From NCBI RefSeq assembly GCF_000203795.2, contig NW_006281101.1, forward strand, positions 1,079,279 through 1,143,278: a stretch of 64,000 bases of DNA. Direction: 5' to 3'. A model generated the notes under the pieces. It saw only the letters and a list, made by a program, of their open reading frames with translations, did not search any database and was not told the origin of the DNA. The position numbers and the translations under genes were made by a program. This DNA comes from Batrachochytrium dendrobatidis JAM81. Its lineage: Eukaryota > Chytridiomycota > Chytridiomycetes > Rhizophydiales. This document shows positions 20,501 to 55,653 of this stretch, one piece after another. Positions within the stretch are counted from its first letter, which is position 1. Each line of letters opens with the position of its first letter.

Positions 20501-23500
20501 CCCGCTTTGGCCAGATTCAGCATTGGCACACCAATCAAATCAATTAAAACCTGGAAAAATTCGCCCCAACCTAATTCAAGTATAGACGTCAGATTGAATG
20601 ATTCAGCATGCAAGGCCTGTTGTTGCAGTGATTCTGAAAGCTCTGACTTTTCAAATGTTTTCGTGTCGTTGTGATCTGAAGTACTATTGAAATCTACACC
20701 ATCGCCATCTGTCAACTGATCTGCGCCAGTCAGTGTAATCTCACTAGCTCCAGGTTGACGACCGCTTCCAAAACTCAAACTGTTTTTATGATAAGCATGG
20801 AGCATAATAAATGTAGATTTGATAATGTCTAAAAACTTGAGTGTGGTTTTGACCACTGTGATATGAAAAGTCAGCCAACTAGTGTTGAACACATCGGGTT
20901 GTAAAAAGACCTGGAATGCCTGTATCATAATGACCAACAGCTGAGCAGTAGAAACTACTCCGAGTGTTGTTGTACGATCCTTTAAAATATTCTGGATTTC
21001 GGAGCTAGAAAATATGCTCATCATAGAGACGATGATCGCGCCAAGATCCTGCAACTCCTTGCGCTGTTGACAAATCGCATTTGCTGACAGTCCCTGGCCT
21101 AAATTAAAAATGACAAACTTTAGTCAACATCTCAATATGTTACAGCAGTGACAAGTCTTACCTTTGGATGGACTTGTAGCTAAACCTACAGCATCCTCAT
21201 TATTGCAAACTTTCTTTACTTGGTTATGTAGCGCAAGAAACAATGAACAAATGGCAAAGAAAATGTTGCCCCATGTTGTTTTTCCAATATCCTTTTTTAC
21301 CATTTGCCCCAAACACTCTTCAGTATTGTCTTCTTGATCAACGGATTCGCTTTGGCGAGTTTTGATCATGTTTACACGTGGTTGGATATGATGAAGAATC
21401 TCTTCAAGTAGTCCAGTAATTTGAACCACTACTTTGGAGTCCAGTACATCTGAATTAAATGTCATATCGATCGTGGAATACGATTGGTTAGAGCTGACGC
21501 GACCATCACTTCCATGAGAAAGAATAGAAGATGAATTCAGATTTTTATGCAGTGTTTCAGTGGTAGAGAGTGTCATTGAATCCAGTAAAATTTCTATAGT
21601 AATCTTTCGAAGACAGCCAAGGTAAGCAGAGAACTCGGGAAGGGTCATCAGTGTTCGTAGCAGCACTAGGCGTCCAGACTTGAGTTTTGGTTTGCTCACA
21701 TTAATCGATGTCAAAAATGAAACAATCAACTTTTCAGTTTGTGTAGAATCAAATACTCGAGATGACATGATAAGAAAATTGGGAAAGTGCTGCAAAGCAA
21801 GCACTTGAGCAGCCAATGCATGATCAGGCTCGTCAAGGGATACTAGATATTGAATACCCTCGTGTAATGCAAGAACACGCTCTACACAGGTAGTCGGTTC
21901 ATATCGATTAAATGGAACTCCATTAATGTGAATGGGGTTAATAGAAGTAACCGGCATAGACGAAGACTCCTGCAAAACCAAGGCGGATGCAGCATAAATA
22001 ATGACTGCTGTTACATTATGCATCACCTTGATCGTAGCACGTAGTAGTTTTCCAAGCTGTATGTCTGCACCAGATCGTAAAAGCTGTTCCAGCTGCTCGC
22101 TAATAACAACCCACGCAGGAGTTCCTTCAACATGAGATTGAACAAACGCTTCAAAAGACTCGATGTTGTTTACAAATCGCTTATCTGCAGCAACAGTCAG
22201 TACAAACACAAGTTTTTGAAAAACATGCCGTTGAATGGCACTTGCATTTCCAGAGGGAAAGTACGTGAGTTTGGGATCCATGGTGGCAACCCACAATCCC
22301 ATCAGCTCCTTGAAGATAGCAGGCATAAACTTGTATACTTCCATGTCATCAACATGAGCAAAAGCGGCAAGCACTGGAGTGATGTTTCCATTAGTTACTG
22401 TGACATGCTGTCGCCAGTTTAGCAGATTAAGAAGCGCAGGATCCTGAGTCATGACAGTAGAAAAGAGAGAGGTTCGAACTGTTAGCGTATCTTTGAGAGT
22501 TGGCAATTTTGAAATGGCATCTGCTGCCTCTGCAATAGATTTTGTTGGAGAAAGCAACATATGAGCAGGCACAAAAAGATTTGGTCCAGCTTGAAAATTA
22601 AGGTAGATTGATGGAGCAGCCGTGAAGCGATCAAACTTGTACAGTGTTAGTTGATGAACTGAATCTGTAATTACAGCATACTGGCTTTTAATAAGCGGTA
22701 TGAATGCAAATGCAAATTTATCGCCAATGATCTCGGCCGTAGAAGGTGCACAAACACGAAATGTCAAGAATAAATGAGCTTTTCTAAAAGTCGATGGTAC
22801 CAAATCAATGCGGATGGTTTCGCTCCACTTGGGAGTTATGCTGTTGGCAAAAACAATGGAATCAAAATAATCCACTGCTTCTTCACCAGCACCCGCTAGA
22901 AACGCACCGCGAACACATTCACCATTGGCCAAGCGAGCTCGGACTGATACTTGTATTCCTCGACCACTAGAGAGACGCACACTGGGAAACGAACCTTCTT
23001 CAAGAGTTAGAAAAATTGTGTTTCGTTTGGCAACTATTGGAATAGTATTCTTGGAGTCACTTGACAAGGCACGAGAACGATCTCCTAAAAGCTTGAATGA
23101 ACGATCCATGCGGGATACTTGAGGAATAGCCCATGAAATTGCTCCAAAGTACCCGAGACGGCATGAAGGAACGATATCAGTCAGAATGCCAGATCTACAA
23201 GCATAGATAGGCGAATCATTACTAAATGTAGCAATTGAAACAGTAATACTTTGAGCAAAAGAAGGAGCGCTGAGCAAATCGGGTTGGCTAAGCAAATCAT
23301 CCAAATGTACACTATCAGAGTCTGTATAAGTTGGAATTACAATCTTCATATGGCATTCCTTGGTATGCACGGTATCGTTGGACAAGTGCTCAAATGCCTT
23401 GGAGATTGGCACAGCCGCAGCACCAAACTGACGTCGAATGTATCGATGGCCAGAAAGGTTTTCAGGATTCAGTGGATTAGCATCTTTGGACCCTTTCAAG

Positions 23501-25242
23501 AAACTAGCGTTAATAGCTGATGAGCTAAACTTTCCACGGACGGTATTGGCAACAGCCGCTCCTGACTTCATTGCTTTGTCAAACACAGATTGATTATTTG
23601 AGATACTTGCCACGCGAACATGAACCATACGACATACTAGCATTAGTTTGTGGCTAATGTCTTTTCCACTGACATCTGTAAAAAGCGTTGCAAGCTTTTC
23701 AGAGTTACTAAAGTCGAGTGAGCTACGCTCCTCGGATGGCTGGCCATTTGAATTGAGACGAATGGAATATTCTTCTGATAAAATCTGCCTATTGGTGGCA
23801 TCGTATATAAAAAAATGAAGCTCGATCATTTCACCAATCTGACAATAGGATGCTACACAAGATTTAAACTCCATGTACATGTGAAATCGTGATATAGAAT
23901 AAGGATCATCCTTTACTTGTGGTCCATTGCTAGATTTTGTCAACCAGTGCGAAACCGCTTTAGAATCACCATTATCAGCAGCATCAGGCACGGCAGATAT
24001 GGAAAGACTTGTAGAGCTAGATATTGTTAATTCATTATCATGGCCAGTGCTACTCTCACCATTTGGTTGCTTATCACCATCTGCAGATTTAGAATTGAGC
24101 AAATCGTTGCTAAAACAAGTGTATAAATCGATTACAGATAGACACTGGTCAGATAGGAGCTGACCAGTGGTTGCATCATACAAAACAGTATCCAAATTAA
24201 GCAGCTTGTTTCCAGTGTTGATTTGAGCTATGATTTTTCGACGACAGCTGATGGTTTCTGCAACAGAGAGAGTACGCGATCGCAGTGTTTGGCGAGCATG
24301 AGCAACAGTTCTGAAAATGGATGATACGATAGGATACATGTCGTACTTTTCATCCATCAAAAGCCCATTGATATGTATGCACCATTCGCGAAGAGTGGAA
24401 GCAACTCCGTCCAAAAATGGATCGTCAAGTCCATCTATCGAGTCATGTGGAGGAATCAGTAGCGGTGGATGATGTCGAGAAACAGTTTTAGTACCAGCTG
24501 CTGGATTAGGGATGGCAGGCAATGAGACACCACGGTGACCATGCAAAACTACTGCAGTGTCAATGGTAAGATCATTGTGTGCTTTGGAGGCTATATCGAT
24601 TGAGCTGCTCGATGCATTATGGTTGCTATCGCCAAGCGCAGCATCAGAAGCTTGGTTACTTTCTTGAGTGTGCACATTCTCTGTACCGTGATTGGATGAT
24701 GGATTCGCTGTTTGAGCACTCTGTGGAGTAGAAGTAGCAATTGAAGCGGAAAGGTCCGTCAAGGATGCAGCACTAGCTGCCTTGTTTGAACCTACCAGCG
24801 TGACAAAGGCGATCGGCACAATGCACGGGCGAACGCCCACAAACGTGCTAGAATTTGTAGTGGATTGGACGGTATTGTTCTGTTCTGCATCGGTACTGAC
24901 AGACAATGATCCCAAACTCGAATTAGAAACGATGGGTTTTGATGCAGGATATAATAGACCTCGATACCAGGCAGAGTTGACCTCGAGCAATTGGATATGA
25001 TCACCCACTTCTAGTCGATGTAAATACGGCTGCGCACTTGGAACGGCCAAATATTCTGGAGGAGGAATGAAAAGTGAGCGAACCACTGCAAATGTTGGCG
25101 GTTGAATCGGAAGTGGATGCCAAGCCTGCTGTTGTGTTTGGCTCTGCTCTTGTTGCGATTGTTTAGGTTGTTGAGCTCGGGGAGTTCCTGGCTGCAGTGT
25201 AAGCAACGATTGCTCCAGCAGTCGCTTGAAGAGCTCGGGCAT
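17568..25242 (-). CDS. DCK1: DOCK-family guanine nucleotide exchange factor (DOCK180/Dck1-like)
   Basis: Three exons, 25242-21162, 21098-18225 and 18127-17568, join in phase to 2,504 residues. An SH3-like N-terminus (VGDHIQLLEVNSAWYRG) is followed by a helical region. A C2-like DHR-1 domain lies at about 735-890 (RNTIFLTLEEGSFPSVRL, ITPKWSETIRIDLVPSTFRK), and the catalytic DHR-2 domain at about 1780-2300 (MYYRVSFYGRGFPRRVSGKQ, KTILLSEDTFPSMNYRSRV, ILKSMFLLC-side helix cut by the last intron). The SH3 + DHR-1 + DHR-2 order is that of the DOCK-A group, which binds ELMO and activates Rac; in yeast Dck1-Lmo1 acts on Rho5. Exon 3 encodes a Ser/Thr-rich tail. Compared with animal DOCK1 (about 1,865) it is long, mainly through Ser-rich insertions near residues 140-260. 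Confidence 0.9.
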
Positions 25243-25492
25243 CAGTCAATGATGAGTACTAGTATATAGATTACCAAATTACACCAACTAAATCTAGGCT
25301 GCACAGATACAAGAACTACAGATAGCTTTCAGAAACAAAGGGATCAAGAGTACTTTTACACTAAAATGGTCAGATCCTCGGCTGATCGTAGGTAGAAAGT
25401 CTTGGCAAGTTTGCTAAAGGATATTCAAATAGCAAATTAAGCAGATTTAACCCAAAATACTTTGTCAGATTTGGAAATGCCCGACAGTAACG

Positions 25493-43805: not shown

Positions 43806-45149
43806 TTACGGTGGAGTCCAGATAAGTGAATGCCCAGCACCAGCACCGACAACACAGTTTTCATCTAAAGTAGATATGCCATTTAAAACAGTAGGAACAA
43901 GAATATCAAGTGTATTGCCAATTCCACAATTCCCATGCTCATTCCAGCCCCATGATATACACTGCATTCTCGCTGGATTCTCATTAGATTTTTCGGCCGT
44001 ATGATGGTCAAAGGCAATCGCAATAATATGCTCTGAACCTGCTGCTATAGCACACTGAACCAATCCAGTTTTAGAATGCTTTGTCTTGATAATCAACGGC
44101 TGATATAGTCCTTTGGAATCTAGACGAACAATCATTTGTGGATACCAGTAAAGCAGACATGGAGTGGTTGAACAAAACAGGTTTAGATCCATAGCATTTA
44201 CTTGGTTTGGCATCGATGATGGGTTTTTGGAGACTGCCAATTGGCCATGATCGTTGCGACCCCATATAAAAACATGGCCAGACTCGCAAACAACTCCACT
44301 AGTAGACCATCCAGCAAATACTGCAATGAATTGCTCTTGGGGTATGGTAGTTTGGATGGTAATAGGGACATGGATAAAGGGATCTGGGTTGCCTTGAGTG
44401 TGTGGGACAGATATAGGCGATGCAGCCAACTGGCCATGCTTGTTTTGTCCAAAGGTATAGATGGCTAACTCAGCATTTAAACCAGAGACCAGAGCAATGG
44501 AATGATTTTGTCCGCAAGCTACATCCAGTACTCTTGCCGAGTTTTGAAGTTTGAGTAATCGAGGCTGAACAATGAGATGCTTTTTAGACGCTAGAGAGTC
44601 CGAATCGATTAAATTCAACAGCTGTCCGTATCTGTTGGAGCCACATCCCCATAAGGACCCATCATGGCCAAGAAAAAGTGTATGTCGCAACCCACATGCA
44701 GTTTTCTTGATAGATGGTAGTTGGGGATGGATGGCAGAGAGGTTGATGAATCCGTTGCATGTATCAGTTTGTTTTACAGATAAAGAAAGCCCCGCTTGAC
44801 CATATAGATTGCATCCAGCAACCCAAACAGCACCACGAAGCGATACAGCAAAGGAGACTTGCCAACCACATGCAATATAGACGATTGGGTCGTTGTGAGC
44901 AGTGTGGATATGAACAGGTATAAAAGTAGCGATGGTAGATATACTTGTATCTGATATTCCAAGTTGTCCATGTGCATTATCACCACAAACAAAAACTTGG
45001 CCTAACGAGTCCAACAGAATAGAATGGTTTGCACCACCAGCTAGTTGCTGGCAACTGCCTGGATGTGATGTCAAAGTAGGTGTTGATGCATCATTTAGTG
45101 ATCCAGTTCCTAGCTGTCCAGCAGCATTGGATCCAGCGGTATAAAGCAT
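43806..45149 (-). CDS. RCC1-repeat (beta-propeller) protein, Ats1-like
   Basis: One uninterrupted frame of 447 residues from ATG at 45149. RCC1-type repeats run the full length, with the hallmark G-x-N-x-x-G-Q-L-G: GSNAAGQLGTGS, GDNAHGQLGIS, GCNLYGQAGLS, GSNRYGQLLN, GQNKHGQLAAS, GRNDHGQLAVS and GWNEHGNCGIGN. These form a seven-bladed propeller, with no other domain. Such proteins act as exchange factors, tubulin- or ribosome-linked adaptors (yeast Ats1) or ubiquitin-ligase parts; the sequence does not settle which. It is divergent from the first CAP gene. Confidence 0.85.
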   Translation of the reverse strand: MLYTAGSNAAGQLGTGSLNDASTPTLTSHPGSCQQLAGGANHSILLDSLGQVFVCGDNAHGQLGISDTSISTIATFIPVHIHTAHNDPIVYIACGWQVSFAVSLRGAVWVAGCNLYGQAGLSLSVKQTDTCNGFINLSAIHPQLPSIKKTACGLRHTLFLGHDGSLWGCGSNRYGQLLNLIDSDSLASKKHLIVQPRLLKLQNSARVLDVACGQNHSIALVSGLNAELAIYTFGQNKHGQLAASPISVPHTQGNPDPFIHVPITIQTTIPQEQFIAVFAGWSTSGVVCESGHVFIWGRNDHGQLAVSKNPSSMPNQVNAMDLNLFCSTTPCLLYWYPQMIVRLDSKGLYQPLIIKTKHSKTGLVQCAIAAGSEHIIAIAFDHHTAEKSNENPARMQCISWGWNEHGNCGIGNTLDILVPTVLNGISTLDENCVVGAGAGHSLIWTPP

Positions 45150-45463
45150 CCAATTAAGTTTGGCAGTGTAGGGATTGGTATGTAGTTGCGTGATGGTTCC
45201 AGTCTGGCATCAGTGAATCTTGTAATAGGCACTGCAGAGCAAAATAGCATTCCGAGTGCCTGTTGGTGTCAATCCAATATTTTCAGCCACCACCCAAACT
45301 GATGGCTTGCGCGTGGCAAATGACGCTTGACCCGCCGTCGAGTCTACCCGTACATTACCCTACTTGATGCTCTTAGTTTTCTTACCCATATTATTGTTTC
45401 TAAAGCGATTGCAAGTAGTGTCTACTTTTAAATCAGTTTCGTTGGCAGTTCGTTAATAGGATC
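45150..45463. other. Shared promoter region of the RCC1-repeat gene and CAP1
   Basis: 314 bases between two divergent start codons. No repeat element or further gene is seen. Confidence 0.45.
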
Positions 45464-46208
45464 ATGGTTGCAGTGTTGTTTATATTCCAATATATTGTGT
45501 TGGCTGTGTTTATCTCGACTACTCCTCAAGTATTGGCTCAAGAAAGTTCTGATACCGTATCGTCAGCACACCAGCATGTCCAACCTAATCTCAACAGTGT
45601 TGCTATGGATATACTTTTTCAGAAGCGAGACAATGATCCCTCGCAGCGAAATGGATGCAGGAGAGCGTTTCAGCCATCGCCGTCGTCTGCTGCATCCAAT
45701 ACTCCTTCCAGAACCAACTCTCCTTCTCCACCTGCTCCAAAACCACCACCTTCTAACGCAGCAGACTTTTCTCGGCGATGTCTCGATCGCATGAACTATT
45801 ATCGACGTTTGCACAAACGTCCCGACCTAATTATGACTGACACGCTCATCGCCAGTGCTCAAGACTGGGCTAGTAATTGTGAATGGAGACACAACTTTGG
45901 TGGTCAAAATCTCTATTCTGGCAAAGATCCCAGTTGTATTGGTGCCGTGGATATGTGGTATGATGAGATCAAGCTGCTGAGAACCAATCCCGTCTACGTT
46001 TCAAGCGTCTTCACATTTGCCGGCCATTTTACTCAAATAGTATCCCCCAATTCTATCTACGCTGGCTGTGCAGTTGGATGCAAGACTGTTTGCAACTTTT
46101 CGTAAGTTCATCAATTCTGAACCATGTATTGAATTTATTTACTAACACCATTGCTTTCGTATCAATAGTCCTCCTGGAAATATAGTTGGATCATGGATGT
46201 CATACTAA
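45464..46208 (+). CDS. CAP1: secreted CAP/SCP (PR-1-like) protein, divergent member
   Basis: Exons 45464-46101 and 46169-46208 join to 225 residues. It has a signal peptide (MVAVLFIFQYIVLAVFI...) and a Lys-Arg site (FQKRDNDPS) before a Pro/Ser-rich stalk. The CAP domain contains CLDRMNYYRRLHKRPDL, the first active-site-like His in CEWRHNFGGQNLYSG and the second in GHFTQIVSPNS. The spliced end SPPGNIVGSW is the conserved C-terminal CAP motif. It is the only member of the cluster with an intron and the most diverged: the GEN(L) motif is GQN and the conserved WP after TQ(L/I) is lost. It is probably extracellular; CAP proteins of fungi bind sterols or lipids. Confidence 0.82.
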
Positions 46209-46375
46209 TTCATGTATATCCTAGTTGACCTCATCTATATATCTTGACTCGGCACGATTATCTTGTTCACTTTTAATTTGCAACATATCAATGCTCTTTT
46301 AATAGTTGTAATGGGAATGAAGAAATAAAATAAAATGAGATTGTCAACCCACACTCATATTTTGGAAACACTGAC

Positions 46376-46600
46376 ATTGAGCAGACTATGGCAGTATTTT
46401 AGAAACAAGAGCCTTTGGTTTGTAAAACTGCACAACTGTTTATGTTAATATACAGACTATAGATGCAACACCAACGTTTTGGTTGCAACAAGATCAAACG
46501 TGCGACGTTGTGTATTGAATCGAGTAAACTGCGATCGTTCGGCAAACTGACCGTGTTGACAATCAGATTATCGCCACGGTACAAGAAACACAAGCGGTAT
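46376..46600. repeat. Dispersed repeat, second type
   Basis: It contains gcagtattttagaaacaaga and tttggtttgtaaaactgcac near 46391-46430, and cagattatcgccacggtaca near 46561, shared with 30430-30745 and partly with 43116-43210. No clear ends were found. Confidence 0.5.
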
Positions 46601-46799
46601 ATACTCCTGCCATTCAGATCAACATACAATCCACCAACATTTGCACAGCATCACCAAGATAGTACACTTTGGGACTAAGCAAACCAATCCAGGTGAGTTG
46701 ACAGTATTTCCATTTGTGTGTCCATAAATTCCACATTCCCAACACCTGTTCAATCTTTGACTGTCCTTTTCTACAACCAAACAGTCAAAGTACGCCTGG

Positions 46800-47170
46800 T
46801 TAATCGTCATAGAAACAACAGTTTATTCGAGATGTGCAATCTGGTTTTCGAACTAGATGCAAATGCATACAAGGTTTCAAGATACACATAGGTTTGTACA
46901 GAATATTACTGATAGCAATTGGACTCAATATTTGGACTATAATGGACAAGTTGGTTTTCAGACTTGGTGGCTGCATAACATATGGCTATAACAAACAGGC
47001 AGGGAACGATAGTATTGAATTAAAACCATGGTCTGATGATGTGTTTAAAATGTACAAGTCAATTTTTAATAGGAAAGCATAACGAATATTCAACCAATGT
47101 CTATTCCAAAGCAAAATGGACAGTCGCTGAAAATGAATACAAGTGTTTCATTTCACATGAATGTAGATTG
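46800..47170. mobile_element. Decayed inverted-repeat element (first type)
   Basis: The right end near 47141-47168 reads agtgtttcatttcacatgaa, and internal bases (cgtcatagaaacaacagttt at 46808; ctattccaaagcaaaatgga at 47101) match copies at 32059 and 63077. The left end is missing. Confidence 0.5.
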
Positions 47171-47927
47171 ATGCATGTTTATTGACAATCATTTCACTGG
47201 CTACAACATAAAGCATTCTCACGTGGATACGCTGTTCCTCCTTCTAGTCAAATAGGAAGGGTTTGGGAATGAGGACATGTGGAATTTACTTGCCATGCTG
47301 TTCGCGACTAGCGACCTCCAACATACTGTTTACGTGTCCCATCAATATCGCGGGTAGCGTACCCTAAGTCTACAACTTCAACTCGAGTGCACAAGACTTG
47401 TATCTCAAAGTAGGCCTATGGTGCAGTAAGCAGTGTTTTTTTGGCCTTCCAAGTACTTTATTTTCAAGCCAGCATATGAACATATGTTGAGTGAATAAAC
47501 AAAATTCAGTAGCAAGTTTAAACCAAGGGTATTAGGCCAACAAGTATTGTTTTTTGCCTAATGGTTTTCTCGCAACCCTGTTCAAATGAATAATTTAATG
47601 CCCCATTAGTTTCATGTTTTCACTGCATGATTAAATTAGTCCCGAGTTCAGACTTGGTGTGCTTTACGCCTATAATTACAGGCTCAAGTTATGGTGGCTG
47701 CTGTCAACTTAGAATACAAGCTGCACTGCCGCCTCGTAAAGTTATTGAACCCGCAGTTTTACCGTTTTTCATAAAGAGACGCTATAAAGACTTGGGGCTC
47801 CAAAGTTCTTGTTAAGATTTGCGACATTTATCCCTCATACATAGATTCCGCAATTGTTGTATAATAGTTGTGAACTACTCCGTATATACACTTACTTGTA
47901 CACCCCATTGAGTCAGTGTCTACCAAT
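47171..47927. other. Spacer upstream of CAP2
   Basis: About 750 bases without a gene. A TATA-like ctataaag at 47782 lies about 145 bases before the CAP2 start. Short frames in the last 100 bases are read-through of the CAP2 gene in other frames. Confidence 0.35.
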
Positions 47928-48902
47928 ATGCATTTCCCATCTGCCATTATCGGCACTCTTTCTTTCATGTCTGTGGTCGCTGCTACCACTATGCACAACT
48001 CGGCCACTGAGCCGATCGAGATGGTTGGTCAAGGCAAGCTTCAGCAGTCTAAAGTCAAGCGATCTCACATTGAAGGTGGTAAACATATCAATCATAGGAA
48101 GAATTCTCACAAGAGGCGCCGTAAGATTCATAGACTGAACAAGCGCAACGGTGCTCATCGCTCCTGTACCAAGACAGCTACTACCGCCACTATTGGAGCA
48201 TCAATTAATAATTTTGATCGAAGCGAGGTGACACCAACTACTCTCAAAAAGAAGTCCACCACAACTCCCAAGAGCCCTACTCCAGCTTCCAAGAAGCCTG
48301 TCCCAACTTTCAAGAGTTCGGTTTCGGCTCACAAAAAGTCTGCTCCAACTCCCAAAAGTCCCGCACCAGCTCCTAGAAAGCAGCCATCTCCAGTTCCCAA
48401 GAGACCCACACCAACCCCCAAGCCAGCTCCTCCCCCAGGCCCAAAACCCCGTAAAGGAGGAAACACCGGTATTGGTGCTGTCGAAAAAAGCTGTCTTGAC
48501 GCCCACAATTACTACCGTGCCATGGTTGGTGTCCCTCCATTGAGTTGGTCTACCACTCTCCAAAACATTGCTCAGCGTTATGCTCAAGAACTCATGGGAA
48601 ACCCTCTTAAACACTCCAGTTTGCGTACCTATGGTGAGAATCTCGATCGCATGACTGGTGCAACACTTACTTGTGAGCATGCTATGGAGACATTCTTTAA
48701 CGAGTACCAACACTACTCTGGCGAGCGTATCTTTGTCAACGCCCAGTTTGAAAAGTATGGTCATTACACTCAGCTCATCTGGCCCAGCACTAACTCTGTA
48801 GGTTGTGGCATGGCAAACGATGGTCATGAATGGAATTTTGTCTGTGAGTACTATCCCCCCGGAAACTATGTTGGTCAAACTGCTCCAACTTACCGTCCTT
48901 AA
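47928..48902 (+). CDS. CAP2: secreted CAP/SCP protein with Pro/Lys-rich stalk
   Basis: One exon, 324 residues from ATG at 47928; the frame reaches back to a GTG at 47916 that is not needed. It has a signal peptide (MHFPSAIIGTLSFMSVVAAT), then Lys-Arg sites (SKVKRSHIEG, RLNKRNGAHR). A stalk of about 80 residues is built from degenerate TPKSPTPA / PVPKRPTPTP units, a pattern typical of O-glycosylated cell-wall spacers. The CAP domain occupies the last about 140 residues: CLDAHNYYRAMVGVPPLSWS, LKHSSLRTYGENLDR, GHYTQLIWPSTNSVGCGMA and CEYYPPGNYVG. All four CAP signature motifs are present. Confidence 0.9.
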   Translation: MHFPSAIIGTLSFMSVVAATTMHNSATEPIEMVGQGKLQQSKVKRSHIEGGKHINHRKNSHKRRRKIHRLNKRNGAHRSCTKTATTATIGASINNFDRSEVTPTTLKKKSTTTPKSPTPASKKPVPTFKSSVSAHKKSAPTPKSPAPAPRKQPSPVPKRPTPTPKPAPPPGPKPRKGGNTGIGAVEKSCLDAHNYYRAMVGVPPLSWSTTLQNIAQRYAQELMGNPLKHSSLRTYGENLDRMTGATLTCEHAMETFFNEYQHYSGERIFVNAQFEKYGHYTQLIWPSTNSVGCGMANDGHEWNFVCEYYPPGNYVGQTAPTYRP

Positions 48903-49097
48903 ACTTGGCGGTTTCTGCGACTTGGGATTCCATTGTTTGATAGCGCAATGCCTTTTAACTTTGAACTCTTCTAAACCATTACCACTTTCCATCTGATGCC
49001 ATTTGTTTTTTATTTCTTGGGAAATACAAACCTGTTACAATATCTTATATATTATATCATTGCTGGTCGTTGAACTATTATCGATAGCTGGCTTTTA

Positions 49098-49415
49098 CAG
49101 CCGTATTCACAGAATAGAACATTAAATATAAGGGTATCAAAGCCTATAATAGACGATTAGTATCATCAAATGATGCTTCATACCAAATTCACTGGTTAAT
49201 ATCGTGGCGTCTAAACCAATGGCTAGATTACAATGGATGAATTCAATGATCATACAATATACGGCTACACCAAACGAAGACAATTTCAATTTAAACTATA
49301 GTCTAATACTATGTGCTTATTCAAGAATTGTGAATGCCCAATAGAAAGCGCAACAGACATCTAATCATTGCCTATTCCAAGATAAACAAGTGTTCCATTT
49401 GCATGAATATGGCTG
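49098..49415. mobile_element. Inverted-repeat element (MITE-like), 318 bp
   Basis: The left end CAGCCGTATTCACAGAATAG and the right end, whose inverted form begins CAGCCATATTCATGCAAATG, are flanked by TA on both sides. It is an internally deleted relative of the 540-bp copies, located between CAP2 and CAP3. Confidence 0.75.
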
Positions 49416-49592
49416 TAAATGCGAGATGGTTAGTCCAGTGTGCCTCCCTTGACTGTTATGATAAACTATGCATTTCTAGTTCATTGCTGTTCATTCGCTA
49501 TTGCGTTATTATACCACTCGATTGCTAAACTCACCTAGCCTGTCGAGCATATCAATACTTGTCCGCTACCCGTACCTATCGCTGCATATAAC

Positions 49593-50327
49593 ATGGGATT
49601 ATTTTCCAGCCGAAAAAAGACAGACTCTTCTGTCAGCTCCTTGGCAACATCTGGAAGAATGGTAACAACAACCACAACAACCAAGACAACAACGATCATT
49701 AATGGCAAGCCAGTCACTACTACTGTTGTCAAAGTAGAGCAAAAGCAACTTCCTTTGTCACTACAAACTCCGTCAGCGACTCTTTTACCAAAGCCATCAT
49801 CTACAACCACAACCACTACTACATATTACAAATCGGTTGCATCTAAACCGCTTTCAGTTGAAAAGCCTCCCTCTACAGACATTCCTCCACATGAATTTGC
49901 AGAAGAGTGTATGTTTCGGCACAATCATTATAGAGCACTTGCTGGTCTTCCCCCACTCAAATGGTCCGACACTCTCGCTGCTGCATCCCAAACTTGGGCC
50001 AACCATCTTGCCTCGACCAATAGGTTTGAGCATTCGCATGGCAAGGTTGGGAAATATGGCGAAAATCTATACTGGACAACAAATAACAAAGCCATTTGTC
50101 GTGACGCTATGGAAGCCTTTTACGCCGAAAAAAAGCTGTATCATGGCGAGCCCATCAGCAACAACAACTGTCATGCCATTGGCCATTACACTCAACTCAT
50201 GTGGCCTACGACGACACATGTTGGTTGCGCTATTGCCACGGACAAGTCAAAGCAAAAACATACAATAGTGTTTGAATACTGGCCTCAAGGCAATATTCTT
50301 GGCCAGTGTGCACCACATAGTTTTTAA
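49593..50327 (+). CDS. CAP3: CAP protein without signal peptide, possible N-myristoylation
   Basis: One exon, 244 residues. The N-terminus is MGLFSSRKKTDSS: Gly at 2, Ser at 6 and then basic residues, the pattern of N-myristoylated proteins, with no hydrophobic signal sequence. A Thr-rich stretch follows (TTTTTTKTTTIINGKPVTTT). The CAP domain is well conserved: CMFRHNHYRALAGLPPLKWS, FEHSHGKVGKYGENLYW, GHYTQLMWPTTTHVGCAIA and FEYWPQGNILGQC. In the last motif Phe replaces the Cys found in the secreted neighbours (CEY), losing a disulfide partner. Together this suggests a cytosolic, membrane-attached protein similar in layout to animal GAPR-1/GLIPR2. Upstream exons with a signal sequence were not found. 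Confidence 0.85.
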   Translation: MGLFSSRKKTDSSVSSLATSGRMVTTTTTTKTTTIINGKPVTTTVVKVEQKQLPLSLQTPSATLLPKPSSTTTTTTTYYKSVASKPLSVEKPPSTDIPPHEFAEECMFRHNHYRALAGLPPLKWSDTLAAASQTWANHLASTNRFEHSHGKVGKYGENLYWTTNNKAICRDAMEAFYAEKKLYHGEPISNNNCHAIGHYTQLMWPTTTHVGCAIATDKSKQKHTIVFEYWPQGNILGQCAPHSF

Positions 50328-50460
50328 TACTCACGCATGGTCAAAGGTAGCACGAGATGTAAGCTTAAGTAGGCTGGCACATCTTCTTTTCCAGTCTTGT
50401 TTCTATATCTTTAAACATGGAATATCATTTGAATTATACTTGTCCTACATGCTTCATTTA

Positions 50461-50820
50461 CAGCCGTATTCATGTAAAATTGAACACTCGTAAGGATACC
50501 AAAGTATATAATAAAGTCGGTTTCATGAAACAGCAACTTCCATCAAATTTATTGGACAATTGTGTTATATAAGCCAATGTCTGGTTTGCAATGGATGAAC
50601 TTGATGAATTTGATGATCGTACAATGTACGGCTATGCCAAAAGTGGAAAAAGAGACAATCTCAATTCAAAATTATAGTCTGTGTGCACCGTATGATGGGC
50701 ATTGTGCTTGTTGAATTGAGATTGTATTGAAGCCGATTTCTAATAGAAAGACCTACCGAATGTTTGGCCACTGTCTATTCTGGGGCAAAATGGTGTTCTA
50801 TTTTACATGAACACAGTTGC
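50461..50820. mobile_element. Inverted-repeat element (MITE-like), about 360 bp
   Basis: It starts TA-CAGCCGTATTCATGTAAAA at 50459-50480. The right end is decayed (ttctattttacatgaacaca near 50797). Internal bases match the copies at 32059, 53890 and 63077. It lies between CAP3 and CAP4. Confidence 0.65.
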
Positions 50821-51449
50821 AATAGGGTATTGATGATCATTTATGCAAACACCAAAAGGCTCCAGTACTTTATGGACCCATCATAGTAATTTGCAACGGC
50901 CCTGACAGTTTGCATGATTGAACAGATTAGACCAATCGGTAAGTTACCGAGGCATGGTGGCAGTGTAATGGTTAGAAGGATCCTGATGCATTGTCATGCA
51001 GATGGTTTGCAATAGACATCATGCTCTTATCTAAATAGTTGACAGTCAAATAGTTTGGACATTTGTAGACTCATTCCAGCCCACATGAAACTAGAGCTGG
51101 TATAACTGCATACACAAAAATATAGCAAAAACAATATTTGTTAAACCTAAATAAAGTGGCTTTAGATTGATGACATGCTTGAAGCAATCAGAATTCTAAT
51201 CATTGCTCGTGGCCATTCCACTATCTTGTCAGTGGTGGTGATGGTCAGTCTTTTGTAATCTTGCCGCTCAGCAACGCCCCCACTGCTATTTTGGCCAATT
51301 CGTTCTAAACGGCTAGTTTTTGGCATGTGGCACTTGAAGTTTAAAACAATTCTAGACTAGTGGCACACGGGTTCATGTTGATTCACACATCGCTGCTACA
51401 CCCGTTTAGACTATTTGACAAACAACAATGCAGCCACATCAATATTCGT
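50821..51449. other. Spacer upstream of CAP4
   Basis: About 630 AT-rich bases; no gene, RNA or clear repeat seen. Confidence 0.4.
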
Positions 51450-51458
51450 TATATAAAA
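51450..51458 (+). promoter_or_regulatory. TATA box of CAP4
   Basis: tatataaaa lies 112 bases before the CAP4 start codon, at a distance and strength matching the boxes before CAP5 and CAP6. Confidence 0.5.
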
Positions 51459-51569
51459 CATGTCTTGGTCTGTCCTTTTCAACCAGAGCCCCTTTGTAAA
51501 GCAGCACTTTAAATCCGTTACATAGCCTATCCTATACATCCAAATTTTGCATTGTATAATTACTAAAAG

Positions 51570-52394
51570 ATGGTTTCACTTACTACATGCATAACTATGC
51601 TGATACTTTCTACACTGTCGTGTGTCACCTCTAAACCTATAGCTGCAGGATCATCTATGGAAATTGCAGGGGCAGACGGCTCTACTGGTATCAGCCATAG
51701 TCTTTACAAGAGAAAAATAAGAAGATGCAAGCGCAGAAAATCAGATCCACCTGCAGCTAAAAATAAAATCAAGAGTGGTGTGAAATCCCAGCCTACTCCA
51801 AAATCTGCTCCTCAACCTGCTCCTCAACCTCCTACTCCAAAATCTGCTCCAAAATCCGTTCCTCAGCCTGCTCCAAAATCTGTTCCAAAACCTGCTCCTC
51901 AGCCTGCTCCTCAACCTGCTCCTCAGCCTACCCAATCTATTCCTCAAGGTACACCTCGCAAAAGCGGAAATACTGGTTTGAATGAGTTTCAGCAAGATTG
52001 CTTGAATACGCACAATCGATTCCGTGCCATTGTTGGCGTCAATCCACTTAGCTGGTCTATAGCTGCAGAACAAGCTGCTCAAACTTGGGCCAGTCATCTT
52101 GCATCTACAGGTCTTTTTCAGCACTCAAAGGGAGCTGTTGGTAAATTTGGTGAGAATCTGTTTTGGTCTAGTCGCGGCGTATATCCTTGCAGTCTAGCCA
52201 TTCAAGCGTTTTTTGACGAGCGTAAAGACTACAATGGTGAACCAATTGGGCAAGGAAATTTTGAATCCTATGGTCATTACACCCAACTGGTTTGGCCCGA
52301 CACCACCCAACTTGGATGTGCTCTTGCCGGAGGAAACACTGTCTGTGAATATTTTCCTCCTGGAAACATTACAGGCAAGCGTGCTCCACGATAG
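51570..52394 (+). CDS. CAP4: secreted CAP/SCP protein with Pro-Gln/Pro-Ala repeat stalk
   Basis: One exon, 274 residues. It has a signal peptide (MVSLTTCITMLILSTLSCVTS), a strongly basic patch with Lys-Arg sites (LYKRKIRRCKRRK), and a stalk made of PAPQPAPKSVPKPAPQP-type units. The CAP domain reads CLNTHNRFRAIVGVNPLSWS, FQHSKGAVGKFGENLFW, GHYTQLVWPDTTQLGCALA and CEYFPPGNITGKRAPR. From the CAP domain to beyond the stop codon it is nearly identical at base level to CAP5, so the two are recent duplicates; their stalks differ. Confidence 0.92.
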   Translation: MVSLTTCITMLILSTLSCVTSKPIAAGSSMEIAGADGSTGISHSLYKRKIRRCKRRKSDPPAAKNKIKSGVKSQPTPKSAPQPAPQPPTPKSAPKSVPQPAPKSVPKPAPQPAPQPAPQPTQSIPQGTPRKSGNTGLNEFQQDCLNTHNRFRAIVGVNPLSWSIAAEQAAQTWASHLASTGLFQHSKGAVGKFGENLFWSSRGVYPCSLAIQAFFDERKDYNGEPIGQGNFESYGHYTQLVWPDTTQLGCALAGGNTVCEYFPPGNITGKRAPR

Positions 52395-52982
52395 TCTTAT
52401 TTTTGTGCATACTGATTTTTACAGCTATTGAATAGAAATATTGAAAAATATTTGTGGTTTCTAGTATCATCTCATTGAATTATCAATAAAAAAGATAATG
52501 ACTGAACTGTGAGGTAGATAGTCTTTTGGGTGGTGGCTGGGATTCGGTTTAATAAAGTCTAATGCTTGTGGCTTCGTGACGTGCTGATAATGACCCATCA
52601 ATGGCTTGGCCAGTGATTTATGTTCGTGAACTTTAAATATTCATCTAAAAGGTTTCCCACATAATGACTGAATGCCATTGGCTTTGAAAAACGGACCTAG
52701 TTACTCACCTGGTTATGGCACGTGTTTCAAGAGTCGAAAAAGAGCATGTATTGGTCATAGCGGCATACGACGTCAGAGCGATTAATGTTGAGCATATGAC
52801 TTTGCTGAGTAATCAACATGGTAGTATATTATCAGCCAGTAAAGTCTAATTTAGACTCATGGTTTTCCAAACTGATGTAAAAACGCGATGATGGTTTAAA
52901 CTCCGCTGATATATGCGTAGCATAATAGTATTATGCATCATTATTGGCTGAGATGTAATTGAATCATTGCCAATTGGCATAG
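52395..52982. other. Spacer between CAP4 and CAP5
   Basis: About 590 bases with no gene and, unlike the other spacers of the array, no recognisable inverted-repeat element. The first about 40 bases match the sequence after CAP5. Confidence 0.45.
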
Positions 52983-52990
52983 TATAAAAA
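52983..52990 (+). promoter_or_regulatory. TATA box of CAP5
   Basis: tataaaaa, 58 bases upstream of the CAP5 start codon, implies a short leader. Confidence 0.5.
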
Positions 52991-53047
52991 GAATAGCTGC
53001 CAGTATATAGTTTAGGTATATCCATCATCTAAACACTTGTATCTACA

Positions 53048-53749
53048 ATGGTCAATTTCGTTATTGCTGCTTTTCTTTTAGTAGTTTCCTCATCTTGCAC
53101 AGCTGCTACAGCTGGTGCAACTGGTACATCAGTTGAGCCATGCGATTCTAAAAACTCGAATCACCCTCGAGAAACCCGCAAACGTACTACCAGGAGAAAG
53201 CGTAGATCGAGAAGCACTACAACCACCGTCAAGCCATCTGTTACACGCAGGCCTACCACCAATCCACTGCCACAACCTGCTCCAACATCTGTCCAACCAC
53301 CTGCTCCTCAGCCAACAACAGGTGGTGGTAATTTGGGAGAATTCCAACAAGATTGCTTGAATACACACAATCGATTCCGTGCCATTGTTGGCGTCAATCC
53401 ACTTAGTTGGTCTGCAGCAGCAGAACAAGCTGCTCGAACGTGGGCCAATCATCTTGCATCTACAGGTCTTTTTGAACATTCAAAGGGAGCTGTTGGTAAA
53501 TTTGGTGAGAATTTGTATTGGTCTAGTCGTGGCGTATATCCTTGCAGTCAAGCCATTCAAGTGTTTTTTGACGAGCGTAAAAACTACAATGGTGAACCAA
53601 TTGGGCAAGGAAACTTTAGCAAATATGGCCATTACACCCAACTGGTTTGGCCTACCACCACCCAGCTTGGATGCGCTCTTGCCGGAGGAAACACTGTCTG
53701 TGAATACTCTCCTCCTGGAAACATTACAGGCCAGCGTGCTCCACGATAG
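53048..53749 (+). CDS. CAP5: secreted CAP/SCP protein, short stalk
   Basis: One exon, 233 residues. It has a signal peptide (MVNFVIAAFLLVVSSSCTAA), then a basic patch (RKRTTRRKRRSRS) and a short Thr/Pro stalk of about 40 residues. The CAP domain (CLNTHNRFRAIVGVNPLSWS, FEHSKGAVGKFGENLYW, GHYTQLVWPTTTQLGCALA, CEYSPPGNITGQRAPR) differs from CAP4 at only a handful of positions, and near-identity continues into the 3' flank. The stalk is unrelated in length and unit to that of CAP4. Confidence 0.92.
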   Translation: MVNFVIAAFLLVVSSSCTAATAGATGTSVEPCDSKNSNHPRETRKRTTRRKRRSRSTTTTVKPSVTRRPTTNPLPQPAPTSVQPPAPQPTTGGGNLGEFQQDCLNTHNRFRAIVGVNPLSWSAAAEQAARTWANHLASTGLFEHSKGAVGKFGENLYWSSRGVYPCSQAIQVFFDERKNYNGEPIGQGNFSKYGHYTQLVWPTTTQLGCALAGGNTVCEYSPPGNITGQRAPR

Positions 53750-53889
53750 TCTTATTTTTATGCATACTGATTTTTATACTCGATAAATTAAATAAACAAT
53801 CTCAAGAATGCAATTATACATGCCAATCACCAGGATATCAGTAAACTAATGAGTTTATACACCAGTCTTGTCCAGCAAATGTGGGTTGA

Positions 53890-54242
53890 ATCGGCACCTA
53901 TCATTTCATGAGATTGAGTGTTCTCTTGAACTAGAACGCAAGCGTATGAGATCAAGATACAGCAATAATGAGTTTGACAGCATCAAAGCAGCTGAACCCA
54001 ATATCTGGATTGCAATGAATAAATCTGGTGATCACACAATGTATGGCTATGCCAAAAGTGGATCATCTCAGTTCAAAACTAATCTAATTGTATGCGTCGT
54101 ATGATGGACGCTGTGTTTTTTTGAATTGAGTGTCCATTCAAGTCAATTTGCAGTAGAACAACAACGACTATGCAATCATTGTATATCCAAAGCATTGACT
54201 GCAAGATGAATACAAGCCCCATTTTACGTGAATACAACAGTG
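53890..54242. mobile_element. Inverted-repeat element, left end lost
   Basis: The right end is at 54224-54242 (ccccattttacgtgaataca). Internal blocks (gtgttctcttgaactagaac at 53919; atctggattgcaatgaataa at 54003) match the full-length copies. It lies between CAP5 and CAP6. The 78-codon frame at 53868 is within it. Confidence 0.6.
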
Positions 54243-54550
54243 AATAGATCCATTTCAAAGTGGTCCCAAAATGCCGAGTCAATTTGGGACACTGCTTGCT
54301 ACCCGATTCGATTTGCACGCTTATAGTTGTGGCCCTTTTTTGTTTTAATTACTGATAGGGCGTAAAGCTTTATTATATTAAGGGAGGATGCGGTGTATTG
54401 ATATACAATATCGACACAACCTCGAGCAATTCACTATAAATGTATTATATCTTTAATACAAGCATCGCCAAGATTTTACAGCACTGCCACCTCCCTGATG
54501 CTGATTAATAGCCCTATATTTTATTGCTATTGGCAAGCCGAGTGCCAGAA

Positions 54551-54558
54551 TATATAAG
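54551..54558 (+). promoter_or_regulatory. TATA box of CAP6
   Basis: tatataag, about 52 bases before the CAP6 start codon. Confidence 0.5.
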
Positions 54559-54609
54559 CCAGGTGCCCCATTTTCTGCATGCCACCTAGATATCACTTTT
54601 GCATATACG

Positions 54610-55653
54610 ATGGTCAAAATAGTATTTGTTTCTATGGCAGTTGCGTGTGCCACCACATTTGTATTTGCCACTCCTCGCAGTTTGGGCCCAAAGTCTGGCA
54701 GTGCACATCAGTCAGCTATCGGCAAGCGTCGCGGTATCTCTGTTCAACGACCCAGCAATAGGGGTCTTGTTCACAAACGTAATGACAGTTCCATTAAGAA
54801 AGTTGCTAAACCGCTCTCCAAGCCAGTGGGAGCTGTCAAATCATCTCCCAAAAGACAGGTTCAAAAGAAGCCATCTCCCAAAAGACAGGTTCAAAAGAAA
54901 CTATCTCCCAAAAGACAGGTTCAAAAGAAACTATCTCCCAAAAGACAGGCTCAAAAGAAGCTATCTCCCAAAAGACAGGTTCAAAAGAAACTATCTCCCA
55001 AAAGACAGGCTCAAAAGAAACTATCTCCCAAAAGACAGGTTCAAAAGAAGCTATCTCCCAAAAGACAGGTTCAAAAGAAGCTATCTCCCAAAAGACAGGT
55101 TCAAAAGAAGCTATCTCCCAAAAGACAGGTTCGAAAGAGTCCATCTCCTAGGAGAAGACAGGTTCGAAAGAGTCCATCTCCTAGGAGAAGACGTATTCAA
55201 AGAGTTTCTTCAAATCTACACACGACTGGAAACAGTGGTATGAGCGGGTTTGAAGCTGATTGCTTGAATACACACAATCAATTACGCGCTGTTGTTGGTG
55301 CTCCGTCATTAAGCTGGTCTCGTTCTGCTGCAAACGCTGCTCAAACTTGGGCCAATCATCTTGCATCTACAGGTCTTTTCCAGCACTCAGGGGGAGCTGT
55401 GGGTGGATTTGGCGAGAGTCTTTATCGGTCTAGTCATGGACAATCTTGCGGTGTGGCCGTCAGGGCATTCTTTAGCGAGCGTGTATATTATCACGGTGGG
55501 CCAATCAGTCTACAAGACCTTAATAATTATGGCCACTACACCCAATTGGTGTGGGCTTCTACCAGACAGGTTGGGTGTGCTCAAGCTGGCGGTAATATCG
55601 TCTGCGAATACTTTCCTCCTGGCAACACTATTGGCCAATATACTTTCCGTTAA
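54610..55653 (+). CDS. CAP6: secreted CAP/SCP protein with tandem Lys-Arg repeat region
   Basis: One exon, 347 residues. It has a signal peptide (MVKIVFVSMAVACATTFVFA) and Lys-Arg sites (IGKRRGIS, VHKRNDS). Ten near-identical 10-residue units of SPKRQVQKKL type follow, then two longer units of SPRRRQVRKSP type. The CAP domain is CLNTHNQLRAVVGAPSLSWS, FQHSGGAVGGFGESLYR, GHYTQLVWASTRQVGCAQA and CEYFPPGNTIGQ. Here GEN is changed to GES and the Trp after Tyr to Arg. The repeat would give a very basic stalk, or a series of peptides if each Lys-Arg is cut by a Kex2-type protease. Confidence 0.9.
   Translation: MVKIVFVSMAVACATTFVFATPRSLGPKSGSAHQSAIGKRRGISVQRPSNRGLVHKRNDSSIKKVAKPLSKPVGAVKSSPKRQVQKKPSPKRQVQKKLSPKRQVQKKLSPKRQAQKKLSPKRQVQKKLSPKRQAQKKLSPKRQVQKKLSPKRQVQKKLSPKRQVQKKLSPKRQVRKSPSPRRRQVRKSPSPRRRRIQRVSSNLHTTGNSGMSGFEADCLNTHNQLRAVVGAPSLSWSRSAANAAQTWANHLASTGLFQHSGGAVGGFGESLYRSSHGQSCGVAVRAFFSERVYYHGGPISLQDLNNYGHYTQLVWASTRQVGCAQAGGNIVCEYFPPGNTIGQYTFR
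54841..55200 (+). repeat. Tandem 30-bp repeat within CAP6 (10 units) followed by two 33-bp units
   Basis: Units of ctatctcccaaaagacaggt tcaaaagaag spacing run from 54841 to 55140 in exact 30-base steps, with only Val/Ala and Lys-codon changes. Two units of ccatctcctaggagaagaca type follow to about 55190. Near-identity at synonymous sites points to recent expansion, so copy number is likely variable. Confidence 0.9.

What the first reader, a model, noticed from the sequence alone, without database searches (positions are those of the whole stretch)
45464..55653. Tandem array of six CAP/SCP (PR-1-like) genes
Six CAP-domain genes lie head-to-tail on one strand in 10 kb with nothing else between them. 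All share a C-terminal CAP domain, but each has a different N-terminal spacer: Pro/Lys units in CAP2, Thr-rich in CAP3, Pro-Gln-Ala units in CAP4, Thr/Pro in CAP5, and SPKR repeats in CAP6. A conserved lipid-binding head on rapidly changing stalks suggests surface or secreted proteins under diversifying pressure, perhaps in host or substrate contact. Clusters of this size are unusual; most fungi have a few CAP genes.
Basis: partly seen in the sequence, partly recalled or inferred. Interest (0 to 1): 0.75.

Follow-up and report, generated by a model that had tools for sequence, protein, structure and literature searches.

The report
Old CAP gene array, frog chytrid
A frog-killing chytrid fungus carries six neighbouring genes for one conserved small protein domain; five look secreted on varying low-complexity stalks and one looks intracellular, and the set looks like an old gene family rather than a recent burst driven by the host.

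Summary
The window is from Batrachochytrium dendrobatidis (Bd). Six open CAP-family genes (PF00188) lie head-to-tail at 45464-55653, between an RCC1-like and a haspin-like gene; CAP1 has a likely 67-nt intron and ends at 46208. They are 6 of 8 CAP genes found in this genome.

(1) The array looks old: among CAP2-CAP6 heads dS is 0.22 for CAP4/CAP5 and 0.93 to saturation in the other nine pairs; CAP2 groups with two dispersed CAP genes; CAP3 has a B. salamandrivorans ortholog. (2) Heads show purifying selection (pairwise dN/dS 0.12-0.31). (3) CAP3 lacks a signal-like start, begins MGLFSSRKK, and its Thr-rich part is predicted, at modest confidence, as beta strands; its top structural match by E-value is GAPR-1. 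(4) The Pry1-type caveolin-binding motif is absent in 8 of 8. (5) Rapid stalk change is real in CAP6: 6, 10, 12 or 14 SPKR-type units in four Bd assemblies, with 0-1 differences in the 153-residue head part. Slippage suffices to explain it.

Most likely: wall-tethered CAP heads binding small lipophilic ligands, plus one intracellular paralog. Function is inferred.

The parts
45464..46101 (+). CAP1 exon 1 (CAP head from about 45761); the first tetrad Glu is Gln (GQN instead of GEN)
   Evidence: PF00188 41.6 bits; tetrad HQEH
46102..46168 (+). CAP1 likely intron, GT-AG, 67 nt
   Evidence: reading across it gives CNFSPPGNIVGSWMSY, the usual CAP end; no transcript evidence
46169..46208 (+). CAP1 exon 2 with stop; protein of 225 aa
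47928..48902 (+). CAP2, 324 aa: signal-like start, very basic Pro/Lys/Thr stalk, CAP head from about 48474
   Evidence: 76.1 bits; net charge +31 from residue 21 to the head; groups with dispersed C21 and C1
49593..50327 (+). CAP3, 244 aa: no signal-like start, MGLFSSRKK start, Thr-rich N part, CAP head from about 49890
   Evidence: 83.9 bits; B. salamandrivorans ortholog P0057 starting MGLF; top PDB structural match by E-value GAPR-1
49659..49748 (+). CAP3 residues 23-52, predicted pair of beta strands around an NGKP turn
   Evidence: AlphaFold2 strands 23-36 and 39-52, block pLDDT 58-73
51570..52394 (+). CAP4, 274 aa: signal-like start, Pro-Gln-Ala / Pro-Lys-Ser stalk, CAP head from 51981
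   Evidence: 64.4 bits; head start
51789..51929 (+). tandem repeat in the CAP4 stalk (periods 12 and 36 nt)
   Evidence: TRF
53048..53749 (+). CAP5, 233 aa: signal-like start, Thr/Arg/Pro stalk, CAP head from 53336
   Evidence: 67.6 bits; head 375/414 bases identical to CAP4
54610..55653 (+). CAP6, 347 aa: signal-like start, SPKRQVQKKL-type repeat stalk, CAP head from 55243
   Evidence: 55.9 bits; net charge +63 from residue 21 to the head
54843..55171 (+). CAP6 coding repeat, 30 nt x 10.9, 94% matches; unit number differs between Bd assemblies
   Evidence: TRF; alleles P0002-P0005
49094..49304 (+). copy of a dispersed repeat between CAP2 and CAP3 (further copies within 50440-50700 and at 53995-54107)
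   Evidence: 40 matches listed from 85 candidates (40 scored), on 12 contigs
43806..45209 (-). left flank: RCC1-like gene
   Evidence: PF25390 231.1 bits, PF00415 163.3 bits
56410..57144 (-). right flank: part of a haspin-like kinase gene
   Evidence: PF12330 101.5 bits

Best explanation
This is an old tandem family of CAP (PR-1-like) genes in B. dendrobatidis. SHOWN: six open genes; CAP family in 6 of 6 and CAP fold in the two modelled; metal-site tetrad kept in 5 of 6 in the array (7 of 8 in the genome); head dS 0.93 or more in nine of ten pairs of CAP2-CAP6; purifying average selection in heads; CAP6 repeat number differs between assemblies; CAP3 lacks a signal-like start. INFERRED: CAP1, 2, 4, 5 and 6 are secreted pre-proteins whose low-complexity, mostly basic stalk (with one cysteine in 4 of these 5) holds the CAP head in the cell wall or on anionic surfaces, while the head binds a small hydrophobic ligand (fatty acid, sterol or other lipophile, not by the Pry1 motif), serving to export, buffer or scavenge such compounds. 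CAP3 is an intracellular, possibly membrane-attached paralog comparable to GAPR-1. Stalks change by repeat slippage; the CAP4 and CAP5 heads are recent copies of each other, by gene conversion or by a duplication limited to the head.
For: PF00188 over cut-off in 6 of 6. Tetrad HEEH in 7 of 8, CAP1 HQEH. CAP3 model: head blocks pLDDT 86-98 before the last four residues; CAP1 model: head blocks 56-96, 9 of 12 above 80; the top PDB matches of both are CAP proteins. Hydrophobic start in the seven other Bd CAPs, not in CAP3; stalk pI 9.4-12.0; a cysteine between signal and head in 6 of those 7. A kexin-type P domain and an N-myristoyltransferase are encoded. Tree and dS. CAP4/5 similarity is far above shuffled sequence in the head; upstream region, signal part and 3' flank beyond +27 are at background, the stalk weakly above. 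Precedents: the N-terminal region of UmPR-1La is necessary and sufficient for wall localisation (PMC10505147, section 7 read); C. albicans Rbe1p is attached to the wall in a disulfide-dependent way (PMC6078311, passages).
Against: No transcript, protein, localisation or ligand data. Signal peptides were judged by hydropathy only. Stalk make-up is mixed (S+T 16-30%, P 10-21%, K+R 9-34% in the five), and CAP1's is hardly charged (net +2), so one tethering mechanism for all five is a guess. Dibasic sites are expected by chance in such basic stalks, and in CAP5 a cut there would remove its only stalk cysteine. CAP6 has no stalk cysteine. The Pry1 motif is missing in 8 of 8, so the class of ligand is open. 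By target TM a plant PR-1 (9lyt, 0.86-0.87) fits the CAP3 model as well as GAPR-1 (0.84-0.86), and GAPR-1 holds a motif-like loop (YNFQQPGF) that CAP3 lacks.
Confidence: 0.55

Rival explanations
1. One reading: surface or secreted effectors under host-driven diversifying selection, with stalks changed to escape or fit the host.
For: CAP6 repeat number differs between assemblies; fungal CAP/PR-1-like proteins are virulence factors in several pathogens (PMC10505147 abstract; PMC6078311 passages; PMC10189770 passages).
Against: Heads under purifying average selection; the CAP3 lineage predates the Bd / B. salamandrivorans split, and relatives with basic, Pro-containing stalks occur in named Terramyces and Globomyces entries. 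Slippage alone explains repeat-number change.
Confidence: 0.2
2. Ordinary housekeeping wall or lipid proteins: an inherited tandem family with no special link to the host; low-complexity stalks drift and slip neutrally.
For: Diverged paralogs; purifying heads; relatives in Polyrhizophydium, Globomyces and Terramyces; no shared exact promoter word among the eight genes (a limited test).
Against: Six open linked copies kept over large divergence suggests some division of labour; stalk basicity recurs (pI 9.4-12.0 in seven of seven).
Confidence: 0.2
3. Sterol-binding and exporting proteins of the Pry1 / C. albicans Rbe1p type.
For: Pry1 is the best sequence match in the PDB for CAP3 and CAP5, the two tested. 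A passage in PMC10505147 says that changes in the PRY1 motif affected cholesteryl acetate but not cholesterol binding, so lack of the motif does not rule out sterol binding.
Against: The aromatic-x-aromatic-x4-aromatic motif found in Pry1 (YDFSNPGF, control) is absent at that loop in 8 of 8 Bd CAPs; the one pattern hit, in CAP2, lies in the C-terminal strand.
Confidence: 0.15

Closest known systems
Moniliophthora perniciosa MpPR-1 family (11 genes; MpPR-1j, c and d in tandem over about 5 kb; PMC3447762 and PMC8120714, passages)
   Same: CAP family of a fungal pathogen with an enlarged number and a tandem cluster
   Different: 3 clustered genes instead of 6; those three are most like each other, whereas here CAP2 is closer to two dispersed genes; a cacao pathogen of another phylum (the phylum is recalled)
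Saccharomyces Pry1-3 (PMC4921858, PMC7340583, passages)
   Same: CAP head with low-complexity regions outside it; metal tetrad; best PDB sequence match of CAP3 and CAP5
   Different: Pry1 has the caveolin-binding motif, absent here; most Bd stalks are strongly basic
Ustilago maydis UmPR-1La (PMC10505147, abstract, section 7 and passages)
   Same: signal, N-terminal extension and CAP head ending in a PPGN peptide
   Different: Ser/Thr-rich extension; CNYD cleavage motif (CAP1-CAP6 have CNFS, CEYY, FEYW, CEYF, CEYS, CEYF); plant host
Mammalian GAPR-1/GLIPR2 (PDB 1smb; PMC6900432, passages)
   Same: for CAP3: no signal-like start; GAPR-1 is the top match by E-value of the CAP3 model (target TM 0.84-0.86); [quoted passage not shown]
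   Different: CAP3 carries about 100 N-terminal residues before the head, with predicted beta strands; GAPR-1 has a motif-like loop (YNFQQPGF) that CAP3 lacks; myristoylation is only a pattern match in Bd and fails in B. salamandrivorans
Candida albicans Rbe1p/Rbt4p (PMC6078311, passages)
   Same: secreted fungal CAPs of an animal pathogen; the disulfide-dependent wall attachment of Rbe1p suggests a use for the stalk cysteine
   Different: both bind cholesterol in vitro; no tandem array described in the passages read

Membership tests
CAP superfamily (PF00188) | CAP domain over the curated cut-off | tested here: met
   6 of 6 in the array, 8 of 8 matches in the genome
CAP superfamily (PF00188) | alpha-beta-alpha CAP fold | tested here: met
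   2 of 8 modelled (CAP1 without its last 12 residues, CAP3); top PDB matches are CAP proteins
CAP superfamily (PF00188) | cavity tetrad His-Glu-Glu-His | tested here: met
   7 of 8 HEEH; CAP1 is HQEH, so not met for CAP1
Sterol-binding Pry type | caveolin-binding motif, aromatics at positions 1, 3 and 8 | tested here: not met
   absent at the loop in 8 of 8; Pry1 control found; positions taken from PMC10505147 passages
Secreted fungal PR-1-like wall proteins | signal peptide | tested here: inconclusive
   hydropathy only: 7 of 8 have a hydrophobic start, CAP3 does not; no signal-peptide predictor available
Secreted fungal PR-1-like wall proteins | N-terminal region tethers the protein to the wall | not testable with these tools
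   precedent only
GAPR-1/GLIPR2 type (CAP3 only) | no signal peptide, intracellular | tested here: inconclusive
   no strongly hydrophobic start in Bd (0.61) or in the B. salamandrivorans ortholog (1.06); location not testable
GAPR-1/GLIPR2 type (CAP3 only) | N-myristoylation (recalled as a feature of GAPR-1; the term has 0 hits in PMC6900432) | tested here: inconclusive
   PROSITE-type pattern (recalled) met by MGLFSSR in Bd, not by MGLFARK in B. salamandrivorans; the enzyme is encoded
GAPR-1/GLIPR2 type (CAP3 only) | common descent with GLIPR2 | not tested
   no GLIPR2 row in the tree

The most novel reading that the evidence does not exclude
One array encodes a two-sided lipid-handling set: an intracellular, membrane-attached CAP (CAP3) and five wall-held CAPs whose tethers are length-tuned. 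CAP6 repeat number would be an easily changed dial for how far, or how tightly, the head is held, differing between Bd lineages.
Probability: 0.1. Interest if true: 0.65.

Novelty: new member of a known kind. Interest (0 to 1): 0.42.

Why it matters
CAP proteins are virulence factors in several fungal pathogens, yet the paper searches made here found none describing them in Bd (open-licence library only; searches list only 20, 40 and 20 of their hits). The locus gives a compact test of head-versus-stalk evolution: diverged paralogs, a recent head copy (CAP4/CAP5) and a coding repeat that differs between assemblies, all within 10 kb and flanked by recognisable genes that allow synteny checks. 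The CAP6 repeat could also serve as an isolate marker.

Tried and rejected
Whole-unit tandem duplication, first suggested by similar stretches between the genes: not supported, because those stretches belong to repeats found on many contigs. My first notebook entry states it wrongly; it was corrected.

A shared promoter element: no exact word (7-mer in 5 or more, 8- or 9-mer in 4 or more, 10-mer in 3 or more) among 300-nt upstream stretches of the eight genes; degenerate motifs were not tested.

CAP relics between the genes: none found (the only outside hit, E 0.18, is a low-complexity stalk match).

A second gene in the genome sharing the CAP3 N-terminal part: none convincing (the only other hit has E 0.93).

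CAP1 as a pseudogene: not supported (open frame, canonical intron, CAP fold), but its tetrad is altered and its branch is very long (2.98), so its place in the tree is unknown.

Myristoylation as a conserved feature of CAP3: weakened, since the B. salamandrivorans ortholog fails the pattern.

Full report
WHAT IS THERE. The window lies on contig C15 (1,079,279-1,143,278) of a 23.49 Mb, 33-contig genome. It is Batrachochytrium dendrobatidis (Bd): near-identical CAP6 proteins (P0003-P0005) and the C21 protein (P0116) carry that name in the protein database. Six genes on the + strand match PF00188 over its cut-off, at 41.6-83.9 bits. Gene starts and ends are: CAP1 45464-46208 with a likely intron at 46102-46168, CAP2 47928-48902, CAP3 49593-50327, CAP4 51570-52394, CAP5 53048-53749, CAP6 54610-55653. 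Left of them is an RCC1-like gene, right of them a haspin-like kinase, both on the other strand. Two further CAP genes lie on contigs C21 and C1, called C21 and C1 below; that makes 8 matches, and a second query gave the same 8. These searches ignore introns, so 8 is a lower bound.

The spaces between the genes hold copies of repeats found on many contigs (40 matches on 12 contigs from 85 candidates, 40 scored; 42 matches, 40 of 228 candidates scored), so their similarity to each other is no sign of block duplication. CAP3 has no hydrophobic start (best 9-residue hydropathy 0.61, against 2.10-3.46 in the other seven Bd CAPs) and begins MGLFSSRKK. The B. salamandrivorans ortholog P0057 (59% identity over 99% of CAP3) also begins MGLF, which supports this start, although one database entry (P0006) starts 22 residues later.

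AGE OF THE ARRAY. A tree of 21 CAP heads (8 from Bd, 13 chosen by hand from the 28 database proteins fetched, out of 146 rows, 145 distinct, listed) puts CAP4, 5 and 6 together (ultrafast bootstrap/SH-aLRT 92/80), CAP2 with C21 and C1 (94/95) and CAP3 with its B. salamandrivorans ortholog (97/99, the only one of these to pass the 95/80 mark). CAP1 has a very long branch (2.98) and no sure place. Ten of 18 inner branches are weak. The same call finds that C21 and C1 form one side of a weak branch (81/48), so the dispersed genes may well have left the array from a CAP2-like copy; the tree does not show that the array itself was assembled from scattered genes. By Nei-Gojobori counts on the heads of CAP2-CAP6 (10 pairs; CAP1, C21 and C1 not included), CAP4/CAP5 have dS 0.22, CAP4/6 and CAP5/6 0.96 and 0.93, and the other seven pairs 1.63 up to saturation. 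dN/dS is 0.12-0.31 in the nine pairs where it can be computed. Such averages show purifying selection overall, cannot exclude selection at single sites, and are unreliable for the deepest pairs because dS is near saturation. No clock was applied: 'old' rests on these dS values and on the CAP3 ortholog.

HEADS AND STALKS. CAP4 and CAP5 heads are identical at 375 of 414 bases, and 26 of the first 27 bases after the stop agree. Their upstream 200 bases, signal parts and later 3' flanks score no better than shuffled sequence (13, 12 and 35 of 100 shuffles reach the observed score); the stalks score a little above (0 of 100 reach it, score 11.5 against a best shuffle of -13.5), and the head far above (672 against -13). 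So the similarity is essentially a head module, which fits gene conversion or a duplication limited to the 3' part. CAP6 carries 10.9 copies of a 30-nt unit. Four Bd assemblies (this one; locus prefixes QVD99, MT418 and O5D80) have 12, 6, 10 and 14 SPKR-type units (degenerate end units counted), repeat stretches of 116, 56, 96 and 136 residues, 0 differences in the 70-residue N part compared and 0-1 in the 153-residue head part. Whether the assemblies are different isolates, and whether repeat numbers suffer from assembly error, was not checked; the point differences between alleles argue that at least some are real. CAP4, C21 and C1 stalks are also tandem repeats at DNA level. Slippage in repeats is therefore the simplest source of stalk change.

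ANATOMY AND LIKELY FUNCTION. The metal-site tetrad is HEEH in 7 of 8 and HQEH in CAP1. AlphaFold2 models keep a CAP core in CAP3 (head blocks pLDDT 86-98, the last four residues 73) and, less evenly, in CAP1 (head blocks 56-96; overall 66). CAP1, modelled without its last 12 residues, matches Pry1 best (target TM 0.61). CAP3 matches GAPR-1 best by E-value (target TM 0.84-0.86), then Pry1 (0.80-0.81), but a plant PR-1 further down has an equal TM (0.86-0.87), and by sequence alone Pry1 leads; the likeness to GAPR-1 is therefore not exclusive. The CAP3 Thr-rich part is predicted as strands at residues 23-36, 39-52 (with an NGKP turn between) and 69-76, at block pLDDT 58-73 for 23-52, a modest confidence; INGKP is conserved in P0057. 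The caveolin-binding motif, whose mutation abolished sterol binding and export by Pry1 according to PMC4921858 (passages), but affected cholesteryl acetate and not cholesterol binding according to PMC10505147 (passage), is absent at the corresponding loop in 8 of 8, while the Pry1 control is found. Stalks of the seven Bd CAPs with a signal-like start have pI 9.4-12.0 (net charge from +2 in CAP1 to +63 in CAP6) and, in 6 of 7, one cysteine; all seven have dibasic sites, which basic composition alone makes likely. Their make-up is mixed, S+T being as large a share as K+R or larger in CAP1, CAP2, CAP4 and CAP5. A kexin-type P domain and an N-myristoyltransferase are encoded. From these parts I infer secreted, wall-held heads with a hydrophobic ligand for five, and an intracellular role for CAP3. 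Precedents for tethering are UmPR-1La, by its N-terminal region, and Rbe1p, in a disulfide-dependent way.

KNOWN OR NEW. The closest precedent is the Moniliophthora MpPR-1 family, 11 genes with 3 in tandem over about 5 kb. S. cerevisiae has 3 CAP genes and C. albicans 5. The proteins here are members of a known family; the six-gene clustering, the missing Pry1 motif, the leaderless member inside the array and the polymorphic basic stalk are variations on it. Searches for papers on CAP proteins in Batrachochytrium or chytrids found none: no paper; twelve papers, unrelated by title; none with the organism's name or 'chytrid' among the 20, 40 and 20 listed of 397, 254 and 345. Term searches inside PMC9926174, PMC5364385, PMC3502224 and PMC11797018 gave 0 hits for 'cysteine-rich' and 'SCP'. 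PMC12204190 was not searched for CAP terms. The library holds open-licence papers only.

VERDICT. The array is real and modestly unusual; the story of diversification under host pressure is not shown, and average selection on the heads speaks against it there. The most useful new points are the divergence of the array members, the odd member CAP3, and the length variation of the CAP6 stalk.

Noticed in passing
window 49094-49304, 50440-50700, 53995-54107; also beside the C21 CAP gene (C21:537168-537276): Pieces of 47-211 nt of one repeat are scattered through the genome at 67-96% identity (40 scored of 85 candidates). Two other dispersed stretches match window 46355-46709 and 47056-47162 (40 scored of 228 candidates).
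   Followed up: partly
window 18205-25245 (-): Two adjoining long ORFs together carry the domains of a DOCK-type exchange factor (DOCK_N, C2, TPR and DHR-2 lobes).
   Followed up: no
window 54505-55653: The CAP6 repeat keeps several frames open (ORFs of over 100 aa in three + frames and one - frame), an effect of its 30-nt unit that could mislead gene finders.
   Followed up: no
P0016 (B. salamandrivorans, BASA62_000110): Its listed protein has a CAP end followed by a C-terminal repeat stalk, the reverse order of the Bd genes; the N-terminus of the gene model looks incomplete.
   Followed up: no
P0116 (JEL423 BDEG_22319) against L005 1450-2442 (-): The deposited JEL423 protein lacks 17 residues at the start of the CAP head that are open in this genome (302 against 319 aa), possibly a mis-called intron.
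   Followed up: no
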